From assembly GCA_034717985.1 (NCBI GenBank), contig JAYEMH010000037.1, positions 1-14,148 on the forward strand: a stretch of 14,148 bases of DNA, in the 5' to 3' direction. Shown here one piece after another: positions 323 through 5,401 of this stretch. The notes beneath the pieces were generated by a model that was not told the DNA's origin, did not search any database, and was given only the letters and a program-made list of their open reading frames with translations. The first letter of the stretch is position 1. Every line of letters starts with the position of its first letter. This DNA comes from JAYEMH01 sp034717985 [NCBI: Candidatus Ratteibacteria bacterium]. Lineage in GTDB: Bacteria > CAZDME01 > JAYEMH01. The translations under genes were made by a program, and so were the position numbers.

Positions 323-907
323 TTAGAAAAAACTCTCCGGGACAAAGATAATATCGGCGGCTTGAAGAGAAACGTCTTTTTCTTTCATCCCTTTTTTGGT
401 GATGTCGGTAATTTTAACCGGAATGATTCGTTCTTCGCCATCTTCCTTTCGGATTATCCGCGTTCCGTTTACACTGGCTATATCACTAAAGCCTCCAGCC
501 ATGGCGATGGCTTCCAAGACGGTAGTTTCTTTTTCGGTATACATATCGTATTTGCCCGGTTGCTTTACGGCGCCAAGCACGGAAACTTGTTTCACATGAT
601 AGCGGCCGATAAATACCTGCACCTGCGGTTCAACCAGATAATCTTTGGCCAAAAGCTTTTCTATTTTTTCTTTTAGCTCACTGACAGTGAAACCGGCCGC
701 CTCTATTTTGCCCAGAAGTGGAAAAGCAATTTCACCGGTAGAGCTGATGCGCACGGTGGTATCTAAGTCCGGCTGTTCATAAACGGCGATATCCAGCACA
801 TCTTCCGGTTGAAGGCGATAATCCGGCTCCTGCGCCCGGACCGGCATAATAATGGAAAGACTTACAAAACACAAAACAGCTATCCTTAGAACCGATTTAA
901 GTTTCAA
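323..907 (-). CDS. Wza-like polysaccharide biosynthesis/export protein (Poly_export + SLBB)
   Basis: Such proteins form the periplasmic and outer-membrane part of capsule or exopolysaccharide exporters. The 194-residue protein has a signal peptide with likely cleavage after VRA (25). A polysaccharide export domain follows (about 27-101, beginning DYRLQPEDVLDIAVYEQPDL, with TVRISSTGEIAFPLLGKI), then one SLBB domain (about 107-157, with VSVLGAVKQPGKYDM and AIAMAGGFSDIAS), and it ends with DIIFVPESFF, the usual terminus of short members. It lacks the second SLBB and outer-membrane helix of E. coli Wza and has no lipobox, so it probably relies on a partner such as the upstream beta-barrel. The start is TTG: an in-frame TAA directly precedes it and GGAGGAG lies 11 bases upstream. 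It was probably one operon with the beta-barrel gene before the repeat element entered. Confidence 0.92.
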   Translation of the reverse strand: MKLKSVLRIAVLCFVSLSIIMPVRAQEPDYRLQPEDVLDIAVYEQPDLDTTVRISSTGEIAFPLLGKIEAAGFTVSELKEKIEKLLAKDYLVEPQVQVFIGRYHVKQVSVLGAVKQPGKYDMYTEKETTVLEAIAMAGGFSDIASVNGTRIIRKEDGEERIIPVKITDITKKGMKEKDVSLQAADIIFVPESFF

Positions 908-1299: not shown

Positions 1300-2565
1300 T
1301 TAAAAGCTGGCAGTAAGAGCAGCGCTTGTCCGATTATTTTTATAATCAAAAATCGGAAAATTGGACTCTCTGATTCTATATTCGTATATGAGACTAACGG
1401 TAAATCTCTTCGGGAATTCATACCCAAGACCGATTGAACCTGACCACAAGTCATCTTTTCTCTTAGCCGTCTTGCCTCCTTCAGTGGTTTCCGTCGGATA
1501 GCCGTTGCGTTGATAATAAAAATTCAAATTACCAAAAATTCTATCCGTGAAACTGTGTTTATAGCCGGCCCCGATAAAAGAATTCTTATAATAAGCATTA
1601 TCCTTATAGATAGTATCGGTAGTTCTTCTCAAGAAATCAAGGCGGAAAATATCCCGGGAACTAAAAACTTCAACTAAACTGCCGTCAAAAATCAGTCCGT
1701 CAAAATCATCGTCATAATCTTCATAATTTTGCTCGCGATAGCCGACTTTTCCTTCTACGGTGCATTTAGCAGTCGGTTTTCCGCGCAGGCCGATTAAGCC
1801 GTCAAAATATTCCGAATCGCTTTTCTTGCCCGTATCATGGTCAATCAAGCCGTAATCCCCGGAAAGAAGAAGCGAGGTCTTGGGCCATAATTTAAAAGCG
1901 GCCTCTATTTCACCTTTATGTTCGTCTCTCTCTAAATCCTTATAAGTCAAGGATTGGCCTTTGAAATCGCCAATAGCATTGTCACTGCGGTAGTTTTCAA
2001 AATTGTAGTAATAACCTAAAGACAAATCCAGTTTATTAAAATCAAAAGTGGTACTGACCTGGGCATAATCCTGAGTCCTGGGGACCCGCGCAACATCTTC
2101 ACTTCCGCTCCGGTCAGAAAAATAATGGAACATATTGGTAAAATCCAGATCAAAAGTATTAAAATCGAGTTTCAGGGCAGCATTGGTAGTGTGATTATCG
2201 GTATCCTCATTATCATAGTCAAGAAAAAATTCTAAATCGGCCCGATAATCCAGGCTGAATTTATGCCTGGTTAATTCCGGTTCAATGATAAAACCCGGGC
2301 TGACAGTAGCAATCCAATCGGTCTTTTCGTCATCATTGGTAAGATAAATATTATCGTCATACGTTCCCATAAGCAGTAAAAAGGGGCGAAACCAAGCTTC
2401 CTGTTCTTCGTGAATAACCGGAAAAGGCCGATACCATGTTTCCCGTGTTTCATACATAACTGAAAAAGGGCGCAACGGGGGTTCCTGGGCATAAGCATAA
2501 TCAGTCAAAACCATACCTTGCGTTAACAAAAATATCCCTGCTGCCAAAAAGATTTTTCTACCCAT
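1300..2565 (-). CDS. Outer-membrane beta-barrel protein of an exopolysaccharide locus
   Basis: The 421-residue protein has a signal peptide cleaved probably after AYA (26), then alternating amphipathic strands rich in aromatic and charged residues ending in ...TAALTASF. A terminal phenylalanine is typical of barrels inserted by the BAM machinery. The segment GTYDDNIYLTNDDEKTDWIA followed by TVSPGFIIEP (67-96) resembles the beta-barrel family (BBP2-like) often encoded beside polysaccharide export genes. After the signal peptide a 14-residue unit is repeated: RPF at 32-34, 46-48 and 60-62, with VxxExxExW between (RPFSVMYETRETWY, then RPFPVIHEEQEAWF). The ATG is preceded by AAGGAGG 8 bases upstream, an excellent ribosome site, and by its own promoter. 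An inserted repeat element separates it from the wza-like gene. A role as polysaccharide porin or secretin partner is inferred from position. Confidence 0.8.
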   Translation of the reverse strand: MGRKIFLAAGIFLLTQGMVLTDYAYAQEPPLRPFSVMYETRETWYRPFPVIHEEQEAWFRPFLLLMGTYDDNIYLTNDDEKTDWIATVSPGFIIEPELTRHKFSLDYRADLEFFLDYDNEDTDNHTTNAALKLDFNTFDLDFTNMFHYFSDRSGSEDVARVPRTQDYAQVSTTFDFNKLDLSLGYYYNFENYRSDNAIGDFKGQSLTYKDLERDEHKGEIEAAFKLWPKTSLLLSGDYGLIDHDTGKKSDSEYFDGLIGLRGKPTAKCTVEGKVGYREQNYEDYDDDFDGLIFDGSLVEVFSSRDIFRLDFLRRTTDTIYKDNAYYKNSFIGAGYKHSFTDRIFGNLNFYYQRNGYPTETTEGGKTAKRKDDLWSGSIGLGYEFPKRFTVSLIYEYRIRESNFPIFDYKNNRTSAALTASF

Positions 2566-2914: not shown

Positions 2915-4321
2915 TTATTTGGCGCCGCAGGCGAACAATACCACCGGAATAGTTTTAAGGAGAATTTTAAAGTCAACCCAGAGAGACCAATTGTCAATAT
3001 ATTCAAGGTCAAGTTTCATCCACCGATTAAAATCAACTATAGTATTTCTTCCGTTCACCTGCCACAAACAGGTTATTCCGGGCGCCATACTCAAACGCCG
3101 CCTCTGCCAGCTATCATATTTGCGAATTTCGGTAGGTATGGCCGGCCTGGGACCAACAATACTCATATCTCCCTTTAACACATTCCAGAGTTGGGGCAGT
3201 TCGTCAATACTGAATTTCCTCAAGAATTTACCCGCTTTTGTCAGGCGGGGGTCATTGGTCATTTTGAACACCGGCCCATTCATCTCATTATAGGCAAAAA
3301 TATCTTTAAGTTTAGTATCCGCATTCGCACCCATTGTTCGAAATTTATACAGGGTGAACCTCCGGCCGTTTACACCGCATCTTTCCTGTTTGAAGAATAC
3401 CGAACCTCTGGAGGTAGCTTTTACGGTGAGCGCTATGGCCGCAAAAACCGGTGATAAAAGAATAAGGGAAATTCCGGCAAAAATTATGTCAAACAAACGC
3501 TTTAATAAAAGATGCCATAATTTATCCGGGGTGGTCTCGAAGGTAAGCAGAGGAAAGCCATTCAACTCAACCTGCTTTGCTCTGGAAAATTTGAGTTTAA
3601 AATAATCCATTGCCACGCTTACCTTTAAACCCTCAGCCTCACAGAAATGCATTATCTCTTCTATCTTACCCAGCCAGGAATGGGGAACAACAAATAAAAC
3701 CTCATCTACCACATTATTATGGATTATATCCGGCAAATCTTTAAAAGCGCCGAGCACTTTACACCCGCTGATCATTTCTCGCTTCCCGGCTTCATTTTCA
3801 TCTATCAATCCGATAATTTTAAAGCCCCACTCAATGTGTCTATTGAGTATCCCTATAAAATTCTGAGCTCTTTTGCCTGTACCTATAATTAAAATATTTC
3901 TATAATTGGCCCCCCTTTTGCGCAGGTATCTTAAGAACTGCATCAGGAGAACCTTCTCTAAACCGATAAAAACCGCCGCCATGATAAAAATAAGAGATAT
4001 AAAGGTTCTACTTATATAAGTAACCTTAAAGATATAAGTAAAACTGCCGAAAATGAGAAATCCAAAAATAGCTGTTTTGAAAATAATAAAGAGAATCCCA
4101 GAAAGCTTTTTAATCCTAAAAGATTCATACATTCCCAAATGGTACAGAAGACTTCCCCATATAAGAAGTAAAAGGGGTAAGAAAAGGATATAAATGTTTA
4201 ATGGATAAATGCCATTCATCTTATCCCGTAGGAAATACCCGAAGAAAAAAGACCCAATCATTATACAGAGGTCAGCAAATATCATCAGTTTTCTAAATAC
4301 TGCGGGGTGTTCCTTTAACAT
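2915..4321 (-). CDS. Exopolysaccharide polyprenyl glycosylphosphotransferase (WbaP/EpsE-type sugar transferase)
   Basis: This enzyme starts repeat-unit assembly by moving a sugar-1-phosphate from a nucleotide sugar to undecaprenyl phosphate on the inner membrane. The 468-residue protein has four N-terminal membrane helices (about 12-31, 41-61, 75-98, 103-125), a Rossmann-like CoA-binding-type domain with NILIIGTGKRA (142-152), then the C-terminal catalytic domain (from about 270). The latter has the hydrophobic membrane segment (275-301), the Arg-rich GRRFTLYKFRTM stretch (about 319-330), DPRLTKAGKFLRKFSIDELP with the catalytic Asp373-Glu374 pair, and SIVGPRP (387-393). The start is the ATG at 4321, six bases after AGGAG; a TTG two codons earlier would sit on the ribosome site itself. 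It is transcribed from the promoter at 4399-4426 and heads the polysaccharide genes. The exact sugar cannot be told. Confidence 0.95.
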   Translation of the reverse strand: MLKEHPAVFRKLMIFADLCIMIGSFFFGYFLRDKMNGIYPLNIYILFLPLLLLIWGSLLYHLGMYESFRIKKLSGILFIIFKTAIFGFLIFGSFTYIFKVTYISRTFISLIFIMAAVFIGLEKVLLMQFLRYLRKRGANYRNILIIGTGKRAQNFIGILNRHIEWGFKIIGLIDENEAGKREMISGCKVLGAFKDLPDIIHNNVVDEVLFVVPHSWLGKIEEIMHFCEAEGLKVSVAMDYFKLKFSRAKQVELNGFPLLTFETTPDKLWHLLLKRLFDIIFAGISLILLSPVFAAIALTVKATSRGSVFFKQERCGVNGRRFTLYKFRTMGANADTKLKDIFAYNEMNGPVFKMTNDPRLTKAGKFLRKFSIDELPQLWNVLKGDMSIVGPRPAIPTEIRKYDSWQRRRLSMAPGITCLWQVNGRNTIVDFNRWMKLDLEYIDNWSLWVDFKILLKTIPVVLFACGAK

Positions 4322-4382: not shown

Positions 4383-4402
4383 AAACGCATATAATCGCAT
4401 TA
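4383..4402. promoter_or_regulatory. Two degenerate copies of the 10-bp repeat over the -10/+1 of the sugar transferase promoter
   Basis: AAACGCATAT then AATCGCATTA match the first two units of the array at 4501-4520 at 16 of 20 positions with the same 10-base period; most differences are C for T. The pair overlaps the -10 box (4399-4404) and the predicted start point near 4392, so a bound protein would be expected to repress or remodel initiation. Confidence 0.45.
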
Positions 4403-4426
4403 TACTACACAAATCAAACTTGTCAA
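4399..4426 (-). promoter_or_regulatory. Consensus sigma-70 promoter of the sugar transferase gene
   Basis: On the minus strand a perfect TTGACA (4421-4426) and a perfect TATAAT (4399-4404) are separated by 16 bases. The predicted start near 4392 gives a leader of about 70 bases. The leader holds an imperfect palindrome, AATCAT (4338-4343) with ATGATT (4349-4354), and ends in an AGGAG ribosome site. Confidence 0.85.
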
Positions 4427-4500
4427 CTATTTTTTTGAATAAGATTTCTTTGAGGATAGGCACAACCAGAAGGGGAACAAATATCACAAATCTTGAAGCA

Positions 4501-4530
4501 AATCGTATATAATCGTTTTAAATCGTATAA
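4501..4530. promoter_or_regulatory. Three 10-bp-phased direct repeats (AATCGT)
   Basis: AATCGTATAT, AATCGTTTTA and AATCGTATAA follow one another with an exact 10-base period, one helical turn, so the AATCGT cores at 4501, 4511 and 4521 face the same side of the DNA. The array lies 8 bases beyond the stop codon of the HTH-HD-GYP gene and about 75 bases upstream of the sugar transferase promoter. It is a candidate binding array for the BldC-like domain encoded next door (inference). Confidence 0.55.
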
Positions 4531-4537
4531 ATAAAAT

Positions 4538-5305
4538 TTAGCCGCTTCTTTTCTTCTGGAGCTTGAGGAATATTTCTACTATCTCAGGGTCAAATTGGGT
4601 ATTAGCCCCTCGTTTAAGCTCGGCAAATGCCGCCTCTTGTGGAATTGCCTTTCGATAGGGTTTCTGCTGGGTCATAACATCAAACGCTTCAGCTACGGCA
4701 ATTATTCGCGCCTCTTTTTGAATATCCCTTCCGGGAAGGCTGTCCGGATAACCTTCACCATCAAATCTCTCATGGTGCTGTCTGATTATTAAAGAAAGTC
4801 GTTTCAAGGGTGCTATCGACTGAACGATTCCTTCTCCCATTTCCGGATGTTTTTTTATTGTTGAGAATTCTTCGCCGGTTAGTGAAGTGGATTTATTTAA
4901 TATCCTTTCTTCTATATTAACCTTACCGATATCGTGAAGAAGTGCGGCTAATTGTAAATCTTTTTTTTGGCTGTCTGAAAATTGAAGTTCTTCGGCAACA
5001 TCAAGACTTGAACGAGCTACTGACTCCGCATGCCCTTGATTGAAAGCTTCTCTTCGCTCGATTACATTTATCAACCCTGAAATTACTTCTAAAACCGGCT
5101 TATTTAGTACAAACTCCTGAAGGTTGATCCCTACACTCGCTGATAAGTCCGACATACGAATACGATGATGTCCTCCCGGGGTTTTGACCGATTTCAGTTT
5201 TCCGGAATAGATGTAATTTTTAATGGTCGGAACGCTAAGGTTAAGAACTGATGCGGCCTGTTTTACCGTCAGAAAGGCATCTTTTCTATCAAAATTCTGA
5301 ATCAT
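4538..5305 (-). CDS. BldC/MerR-type HTH fused to HD-GYP domain: putative cyclic-di-GMP phosphodiesterase-regulator
   Basis: The protein (255 residues from this start) has two parts. Residues about 11-55, from FLTVKQAASVLNLSVPTIKN to GKLKSVKTPGGHHRIRMSDL, form a winged helix of the BldC/MerR/excisionase type. The rest (about 70-250) is an HD-GYP domain with the HD pair at 124-125 in LLHDIGK, His92 and His153 as further metal ligands, and HHERFDGEGYP at 177-187. The usual VADxFD motif reads VAEAFD, with Glu206 for Asp, a conservative change. HD-GYP domains hydrolyse cyclic di-GMP and are commonly fused to receiver domains; a DNA-binding partner is unusual. I start at 5305 because GGAG lies 5 bases upstream of that ATG. 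An ATG at 5359 (273 residues) is in frame but lacks a ribosome site and would be almost leaderless. DNA binding and enzyme activity are inferred from motifs. The gene lies between the protease and the polysaccharide genes. Confidence 0.88.
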   Translation of the reverse strand: MIQNFDRKDAFLTVKQAASVLNLSVPTIKNYIYSGKLKSVKTPGGHHRIRMSDLSASVGINLQEFVLNKPVLEVISGLINVIERREAFNQGHAESVARSSLDVAEELQFSDSQKKDLQLAALLHDIGKVNIEERILNKSTSLTGEEFSTIKKHPEMGEGIVQSIAPLKRLSLIIRQHHERFDGEGYPDSLPGRDIQKEARIIAVAEAFDVMTQQKPYRKAIPQEAAFAELKRGANTQFDPEIVEIFLKLQKKRSG

Positions 5306-5372
5306 ATCCACTCCAGCCCCACTATTCCATTGATGGTTTTTATCCGTTGAATTACGCATAATATCAACTAAT

Positions 5373-5401
5373 ACTGTATCATTCTATACTATTCTTGTCA
5401 A
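5373..5401 (-). promoter_or_regulatory. Sigma-70-type promoter of the HTH-HD-GYP gene
   Basis: On the minus strand a perfect -35 box TTGACA (5396-5401) is followed after exactly 17 bases by TACAGT (5373-5378, four of six matches to TATAAT). Transcription would begin near 5366. That leaves about 60 bases before the ATG at 5305 but only about 7 before the ATG at 5359, which supports the shorter protein. Confidence 0.65.

What the first reader, a model, noticed from the sequence alone, without database searches (positions are those of the whole stretch)
4383..4530. 10-bp-phased AATCGY direct repeats at the polysaccharide promoter: candidate operator for the neighbouring HTH-HD-GYP protein
Three AATCGT units with an exact 10-base period (4501-4530) and two degenerate units over the -10/+1 of a perfect promoter (4383-4402; 16 of 20 matches) sit between the regulator gene and the sugar transferase it would control. 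BldC is known to bind direct repeats as head-to-tail multimers, so the repeat geometry fits the domain type. One further copy lies in the beta-barrel leader (2608-2617). Together this suggests a local circuit in which the HD-GYP protein controls exopolysaccharide synthesis.
Basis: partly seen in the sequence, partly recalled or inferred. Interest (0 to 1): 0.75.

Follow-up and report, generated by a model that had tools for sequence, protein, structure and literature searches.

The report
Ten-base-repeat switch for slime-coat genes
Beside a gene set for making a sugary outer coat lies a row of short DNA repeats spaced exactly ten bases apart, and the same kind of row recurs at the matching control site in distant relatives that carry the same type of DNA-binding protein, so it is probably that protein's docking site for switching the coat genes.

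Summary
The repeats are real and unlikely by chance. On the coding strand the unit is about TTTAYACGRT. Three units (4531-4502) and two units lying over the -10/+1 of a 12/12 sigma-70 promoter (4403-4384) stand upstream of an exopolysaccharide (EPS) sugar transferase. A weight matrix made only from the three window units, scored at 10-bp spacing, was run on loci of other Omnitrophota. The expected promoter was the best ORF-upstream region in 20 of 23 loci with the BldC-like HTH gene, against 3 of 14 EPS operons without it. A matrix-free test gives lag-10 self-similarity z=10.7 in those 23 regions, against -1.1 in the controls. The array follows the HTH domain whether it is fused to HD-GYP or stands alone. 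In 13 of 20 arrays listed it overlaps, abuts or lies within 30 bp downstream of a near-consensus -10. I conclude that it is a conserved operator of a BldC-like regulator of EPS operons, probably a repressor; binding is inferred. The HD-GYP part, mostly lacking the HDxGK lysine, may sense a ligand (c-di-GMP untested). It differs from BldC in its 10-bp unit, fused domain and target. The copy at 2608-2617 is not supported.

The parts
4502..4531 (-). Array B: three 10-bp units TTTATACGAT TTAAAACGAT TATATACGAT, about 110-140 bp upstream of the expected start site, just after the regulator's stop codon
4384..4403 (-). Array A: two units ATAATGCGAT TATATGCGTT overlapping the -10 and start-site region
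   Evidence: (third-best hit in the window, after two registers of array B)
4421..4426 (-). -35 TTGACA of the sugar transferase promoter
4399..4404 (-). -10 TATAAT (16-bp spacer), 12/12 consensus
4538..5305 (-). Regulator gene: BldC-like HTH (Pfam HTH_17) fused to HD-GYP (Pfam HD_5); ORF opens at 5359, ATG 5305 preferred by alignment to relatives and GGAG upstream
5141..5275 (-). HTH_17 domain of the regulator (residues 29-73 of the 273-aa ORF)
4580..5074 (-). HD-GYP domain (residues 96-260 of the 273-aa ORF)
5373..5401 (-). TTGACA-17-TACAGT promoter-like site (10/12) of the regulator gene; no strong array next to it
2915..4321 (-). EPS polyprenyl glycosylphosphotransferase (sugar transferase), the predicted target; many relatives start MLKEH or similar, so ATG 4321 rather than TTG 4327
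1300..2565 (-). BBP2_2 outer-membrane barrel of the EPS cluster
323..907 (-). Poly_export/SLBB polysaccharide export protein of the EPS cluster

Best explanation
The two arrays are an operator for the BldC-like HTH domain of the protein encoded next door (4538-5305). Shown by computation: in the Omnitrophota loci examined, a 10-bp tandem array of unit about TTTAYACGRT marks the promoter of the EPS operon and/or regulator gene, follows the HTH domain with or without HD-GYP, and in 13 of 20 arrays listed overlaps, abuts or lies within 30 bp downstream of the -10 of a near-consensus sigma-70 promoter. Inferred: HTH domains dock head to tail, one per 10-bp unit and all on one face of the DNA, cover the start region and block RNA polymerase (repression; autorepression where the regulator is the first gene). 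In the window, array B upstream and array A on the promoter would act together, as two arrays also bracket the promoter in L121. Further inferred: the HD-GYP part, mostly altered at the HDxGK lysine, is a ligand-sensing or oligomerisation module, with c-di-GMP the obvious but untested candidate, that sets how well the array is filled.
For: Matrix from the window's three units only: the best hit of the whole 9-20 kb locus is 22-87 bp upstream of the regulator start, on its strand, in 5 of 6 EPS-head loci and third in the sixth; by mean log rank 0 of 500 column-permuted matrices did as well, and spacings 7-9, 11-15 and 21 were worse, while 20 was about as good, as expected of arrays. Extended set: top ORF-upstream region in 20 of 23 HTH loci (best of the whole locus in 16) against 3 of 14 EPS operons without the HTH; spacings 8, 9, 11, 12 give 9-11 of 23; permuted matrices average 6.3 of 23. 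Matrix-free lag test: lag 10 z=10.7 in 23 regions, next best lag 4.1, controls -1.1. EPS-head upstream regions are at shuffled-level identity (median 0.57 against 0.57). Gene linkage: HTH-HD heads BBP2-sugar transferase operons in L110-L113 and the transferase in L114; in L118-L121 it lies between Wzz-like and Wzy-like genes (Pfam-tested for L111 and L120 only). Stand-alone HTH genes with arrays: L212, L178, L257, L258, L259, L260. HTH matches BldC structures 6ama/6amk by sequence (E 5e-4) and by fold (TM 0.79-0.89 normalised to BldC, probability 1.00, Foldseek E 0.04-0.09). Promoter overlap.
Against: No binding or expression data. The window's own genome is not held and the closest HTH found (L256) lies at a contig end. 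Misses: L117 (rank 33 in its locus), L147 (rank 18), L252 (second among ORF-upstreams); L259's array is about 225 bp from the called HTH start and would count as a miss under the 150-bp rule. Controls are not clean: 3 of 14 (L209, L214, L216) are first, L216 also best of its locus. One of 300 permuted matrices reached 20 of 23, and at least one of 500 reached 5 first ranks of 6. In L115 two better hits lie inside the BBP2 gene. The regulator's own promoter in the window has no strong array. In clade 2 the array is mostly in the opposite orientation and the loci are partly alignable (median identity 0.70), so they are not independent. L260 has an array before an HTH gene without visible EPS neighbours. 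L178's HTH is divergent (missed by the family HMM at 1e-3; HTH_17 by Pfam). HTH-HD genes of records titled Deltaproteobacteria, Thermodesulfobacteriota or Proteobacteria show no lag-10 signal (z=0.4 in 9). BldC's guanine-reading Arg30 (PMC5859096, passages) aligns with Asn here.
Confidence: 0.82

Rival explanations
1. The arrays are the operator of a different DNA-binding protein that merely regulates the same EPS promoters.
For: Binding was not tested; in clade 2 the arrays lie at BBP2 promoters several kb away from the HTH-HD gene, and three of 14 EPS promoters without the HTH also come first.
Against: Arrays follow the presence of this HTH: 20 of 23 loci with it, 3 of 14 EPS operons without it, and two array-bearing loci among the intended controls turned out to carry a stand-alone HTH gene just behind the array.
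Confidence: 0.1
2. Activation rather than repression: a chain of HTH domains recruits or remodels polymerase.
For: Array B in the window lies about 110-140 bp upstream of the expected start and L121 has an array just upstream of the -35, positions open to activators.
Against: Eight of the 20 arrays listed stand at 12/12 promoters and five at 11/12, in eight of these 13 overlapping or abutting the -10, where a bound chain should block polymerase.
Confidence: 0.2
3. The arrays are degenerate copies of a dispersed ~10-bp-period ACACGAAT repeat that also occurs in EPS operons of related genomes (L203, L206).
For: Similar look: L203 4710 and 5942, L206 6228.
Against: The consensus array is rare in the eight genomes searched (0-5 places each at <=3 mismatches, 20 in all against 23 for the reversed control), and in EPS-head loci it sits at one functional position in otherwise unalignable DNA.
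Confidence: 0.03
4. Chance or AT-rich promoter composition.
For: Upstream regions are AT-rich; column-permuted matrices also prefer them somewhat (6.3 of 23).
Against: Dinucleotide shuffles and lag scans single out lag 10 (z=10.7), and not in 14 EPS promoters without the HTH.
Confidence: 0.02
5. A transcribed leader (RNA) element rather than a DNA operator.
For: Many arrays lie downstream of the -10 and would be transcribed.
Against: In clade 2 the array mostly has the opposite orientation, and array B in the window lies upstream of the predicted promoter.
Confidence: 0.02

Closest known systems
BldC of Streptomyces (MerR-like HTH binding direct repeats head to tail; PMC5859096, passages read)
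   Same: HTH aligned over the whole domain (E 5e-4), same fold; tandem direct repeats of an AT-rich half followed by a C/G; variable number of repeats; promoter targets
   Different: Repeat 10 bp, not 9 (AATTXXXX(C)); BldC's Arg30 is Asn or Lys at the aligned place (my mapping); fused to HD-GYP in the window; EPS operon target; Omnitrophota instead of Streptomyces; scores far below NCBI's BldC family cut-off (28 against 77 bits)
HD-GYP c-di-GMP phosphodiesterases (PA4781 4r8z, tri-nuclear 4mcw, DvhD 9rbz)
   Same: HD-GYP fold and motifs, structure matches E about 1e-10; window protein keeps HDxGK, HHE and DGxGYP
   Different: Fused to a DNA-binding HTH; complete HDxGK in 2 of 16 Omnitrophota members aligned, and VAD becomes VAE in 13 of 16
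c-di-GMP-responsive transcription factors such as BldD and the MerR-like BrlR (titles and starts of abstracts only)
   Same: Would link a second messenger to biofilm or developmental genes through a DNA-binding protein
   Different: No HD-GYP domain serves as the sensor there (recalled); c-di-GMP binding is untested here

Membership tests
BldC family (founding member S. venezuelae BldC) | MerR-like winged HTH domain | tested here: met
   sequence match to 6amk/6ama, E 5e-4; fold, TM 0.79-0.89 normalised to BldC; Foldseek E 0.04-0.09, short domain
BldC family (founding member S. venezuelae BldC) | NCBIfam HTH_BldC subfamily cut-off | tested here: not met
   28.4 bits against cut-off 77
BldC family (founding member S. 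venezuelae BldC) | Binds tandem direct repeats head to tail | not testable with these tools
   Arrays of tandem direct repeats co-occur with the HTH; binding not measured
BldC family (founding member S. venezuelae BldC) | 9-bp repeat AATTXXXX(C) | tested here: not met
   Lag 10, not 9, is the peak (z 10.7 against 1.0)
BldC family (founding member S. venezuelae BldC) | Only a wHTH, no further domain | tested here: not met
   Window protein is HTH + HD-GYP; L212 is HTH_17 alone, L257 and L258 by their length of 60-61 residues
HD-GYP phosphodiesterases | HD and GYP motifs, HD-GYP fold | tested here: met
HD-GYP phosphodiesterases | Intact metal/catalytic residues | tested here: inconclusive
   Window keeps HDxGK but has VAE for VAD; complete HDxGK in 2 of 16 Omnitrophota members incl. 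the window
HD-GYP phosphodiesterases | c-di-GMP hydrolysis or binding | not testable with these tools
   Needs protein

The most novel reading that the evidence does not exclude
A BldC-type filament-forming repressor whose head-to-tail assembly on a 10-bp-phased operator is set by c-di-GMP (or another nucleotide) bound to a fused, mostly non-catalytic HD-GYP domain, so that the messenger's level directly switches EPS operons in Omnitrophota; HD-GYP would here be a transcription factor's sensor, not an enzyme.
Probability: 0.35. Interest if true: 0.85.

Novelty: new variant of a known kind. Interest (0 to 1): 0.64.

Why it matters
BldC-like proteins radiate through bacteria (PMC5859096, abstract), but the paper on the BldC regulon says its sites cannot be predicted bioinformatically (PMC6428758, passage). 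Here a BldC-like domain comes with a predictable, conserved operator, read from one window and recovered in distant genomes. That gives a direct test of how head-to-tail assembly works at a 10-bp step, proposes a target (EPS operons) and possibly a ligand sensor (HD-GYP) in a phylum known here almost only from metagenome assemblies, and lets regulon members be sought by sequence.

Tried and rejected
Rejected or unproductive: (a) the 2608-2617 copy as an operator: single unit, weak pair score. (b) Census of arrays in the window's genome: no genome held; done in eight relatives instead. (c) HTH-HD genes of records titled Deltaproteobacteria, Thermodesulfobacteriota or Proteobacteria (called 'Desulfobacterota' below) as carriers of the same operator: no lag-10 signal in 9 upstream regions (L005 and L061 not entered), although the best hits of L006 and L007 lie upstream. 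(d) First regexes missed most relatives because the units vary. (e) Dispersed ACACGAAT repeats as source: see rivals. (f) Papers: searches (open-access PMC library only; listings, with passages read only in PMC5859096 and PMC6428758) showed me no HTH-HD-GYP transcription factor and no EPS operator in Omnitrophota; this is not proof of absence in print.

How the sets were formed. The 23 regions are loci with this HTH family for which the promoter (regulator start in L110-L117 and the stand-alone HTH loci; BBP2 start in clade 2) was on the contig. The BBP2 choice for L118-L121 was made after seeing those four; L145, L147 and L251-L255 were then prospective (5 of 7 first, 2 second). L212 entered because its array was seen first; L257, L258 and L260 came from an HTH search. 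Starts moved by me: L110 (7134 to 7023, so that the array lies outside the gene) and L212 (5039). Left out: the window; L146 (no BBP2 on contig); L178 (array 80-109 bp before the HTH start, over 200 bp before BBP2; only three ORFs); L259 (would be a miss, making 20 of 24); L225 (weak best hit); L248 (best hit downstream of the gene); L256 (contig end). Controls: 14 of the 24 loci fetched; not counted were L174-L176, L195 and L218-L220 (no BBP2 before the transferase), L213 (BBP2 start off the contig), L178 and L212 (stand-alone HTH). The control loci hold no HTH of this family at 1e-3 and their genomes no HTH-HD at 1e-38; a stand-alone HTH elsewhere in those genomes is not excluded. Some controls are sister genomes by look (L203/L206, L204/L205). 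The score cut-off of 11 was chosen after seeing the scores. The consensus uses arrays chosen with the window matrix and leans towards it.

Full report
What is there. The window carries, all on the minus strand, a regulator gene (4538-5305; HTH_17 plus HD_5), an EPS sugar transferase (2915-4321; TIGR03025 432 bits), a BBP2_2 barrel and a Poly_export protein. Between regulator and transferase stand a 12/12 sigma-70 promoter (4426-4399) and two arrays of a 10-bp unit: array B, three units (4531-4502), and array A, two units over the -10/+1 (4403-4384). The arrays match at 16 of 20 bases. An equal-spaced triple is not seen in 2000 shuffles of the intergenic stretch.

Relatives. Full-length relatives of the regulator were found in the phylum of G003, whose record is titled Candidatus Omnitrophota (10 of 384 genomes at E<=1e-52; 12 of 334 and 7 of 197 in overlapping samples), and, with other neighbours, in records titled Deltaproteobacteria, Thermodesulfobacteriota and Proteobacteria. 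In Omnitrophota the gene heads a BBP2-sugar transferase operon in L110-L113, followed by Poly_export-like and Wzz-like genes (by eye; Pfam-tested in L111), with overlapping or adjacent gene ends in L111-L113, and the transferase in L114. In L115 it precedes an exporter-like pair with the EPS operon upstream. In clade 2 (L118-L121 and others) it lies between a Wzz-like gene and an O-antigen ligase/Wzy-like gene of an operon that begins with BBP2 (Pfam-tested in L120). L116 and L117 sit elsewhere. That the window is Omnitrophota is inferred from these relatives; no record names it.

The operator test. I made a weight matrix from the window's three units alone and scored pairs at 10-bp spacing on both strands of the relatives' loci. 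In 5 of 6 EPS-head loci the single best place of the whole locus was 22-87 bp upstream of the regulator start on the right strand; in the sixth it was third (the L110 start was moved by me to the next ATG behind the array). By mean log rank none of 500 column-permuted matrices did as well, though at least one reached as many first ranks; other spacings were worse except 20, which is two steps of an array. In clade 2 the best places fell upstream of BBP2, the first gene of the operon, mostly in reverse orientation. This was noticed on four loci and then tested on seven new ones: first among all ORF-upstream regions in five, second in two. Over 23 loci with this HTH the expected promoter was first in 20, against 3 of 14 EPS operons without it. 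The control loci have no such HTH and their genomes no HTH-HD at 1e-38. Permuted matrices average 6.3 of 23, and 1 of 300 reached 20; spacings 8, 9, 11 and 12 give 9, 9, 10 and 11. A version with a score cut-off of 11, chosen after seeing the scores, gave 12 of 15 against 2 of 15 (Mann-Whitney p=2e-4). The matrix-free lag test peaks at 10 (z=10.7 over 23 regions, -1.1 in 14 controls), separately in EPS-head loci (6.5), clade 2 (6.3, with 5.7 at lag 11) and four stand-alone HTH loci (4.4), and not in 9 'Desulfobacterota' regions (0.4).

The array follows the HTH, not the HD-GYP. Two array-positive loci among the intended controls turned out to encode a stand-alone HTH_17 protein of 62-67 residues between array and BBP2: L212 and L178. 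A search with the L212 protein (27 of 279 genomes at 1e-8) gave more: L226/L257 (HTH then BBP2; four units AATACACGAT TTTACACGGT TTTAAACGAT TTTACCCGTT), L230/L258 and L229/L259 (HTH, export-like, Wzz-like; array directly after TATAAT, in L229/L259 about 225 bp before the called HTH start), and L223/L260 (no visible EPS neighbours). L225 gave only a weak best hit, and the best hit of L248 lies downstream of its HTH-HD gene.

Position and mechanism. Of 20 arrays listed, eight stand at 12/12 promoters (window A, L110, L112, L113, L116, L178, L229, L230) and five at 11/12 (L111, L226, L120, L121, L145). In these 13 the array overlaps the -10 (window A, L110, L178, L229, the second array of L121), abuts it (L230, L120, L145) or starts 4-29 bp behind it (L111, L226, L112, L113, L116). 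The other seven listed (window B, L114, L115, L118, L119, L212, L223) have only 8-9 of 12 matches. The promoter was sought near the array, which favours finding one, but not of this quality. A chain of HTH domains on such a site should block polymerase, hence repression; that is inference. BldC binds 9-bp repeats AATTXXXX(C) as a head-to-tail oligomer and reads a guanine with Arg30 (PMC5859096, passages). The present HTH aligns with BldC end to end and superposes, but has Asn or Lys at the aligned place of Arg30 (my mapping) and a 10-bp step, which would keep successive subunits on one face of the DNA.

The HD-GYP part. Its fold matches c-di-GMP-bound DvhD and PA4781 HD-GYP (model pLDDT 84, pTM 0.69). 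GYP is kept in 16 of 16 Omnitrophota members aligned, the HDxGK motif is complete in 2 of 16 (window and L112), VAD is VAE in 13 of 16. A sensing role is thus more likely than hydrolysis for most members, while the window protein may still be an enzyme.

Genome-wide. With the two-unit consensus at <=3 mismatches, eight genomes have 0-5 places each (20 in all, against 23 for the reversed control pattern). Of the 8 places at <=2 mismatches 7 are at the HTH/EPS promoter, two of them overlapping in one array of G003; the eighth, in G002, was not looked into. The consensus came from these loci, so this is descriptive. It suggests a local circuit rather than a large regulon.

Verdict. It is a new variant of a known kind: BldC-like direct-repeat recognition with a 10-bp unit, often coupled to HD-GYP, at EPS operons.

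Noticed in passing
L203 4710 and 5942, L206 6228: Repeats of about 10-bp period (ACACGAAT) flank a 135-aa gene inserted in EPS operons (resembles GxxExxY proteins, name recalled); look-alike of the operator but a different element.
   Followed up: partly
L002, L007, L009, L012: HTH-HD genes of Deltaproteobacteria/Thermodesulfobacteriota-type records lie just upstream of a ~140-150-aa gene conserved among them, followed in L002, L009 and L012 by two genes that by eye look like panB and panC; no 10-bp periodicity upstream of 9 such HTH-HD genes.
   Followed up: partly
L118-L121, L145-L147, L251-L255, upstream of HTH-HD: A recurring stretch like GTTAAAAAAACTTAAAATTGACTAATATCG precedes the clade-2 regulator gene; lag-10 self-similarity z=4.6 over 12 regions: possibly a second, diverged operator.
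   Followed up: partly
L256 (G365 contig 217, 3532-3720): HTH nearly the same as the window's, cut by the contig end; probably the closest relative of the window's regulator seen here.
   Followed up: no
L121 9972-10001 and 10035-10064: Two arrays bracket one promoter, as arrays B and A do on a larger scale in the window.
   Followed up: no
L248 2349-2378: A good array downstream of a second type of HTH-HD gene in G078, before a gene of an unknown secreted-protein cluster.
   Followed up: no
G002 contig 15, 15565-15584 (L125): The one place within 2 mismatches of the two-unit consensus that is not at an HTH/EPS promoter.
   Followed up: no
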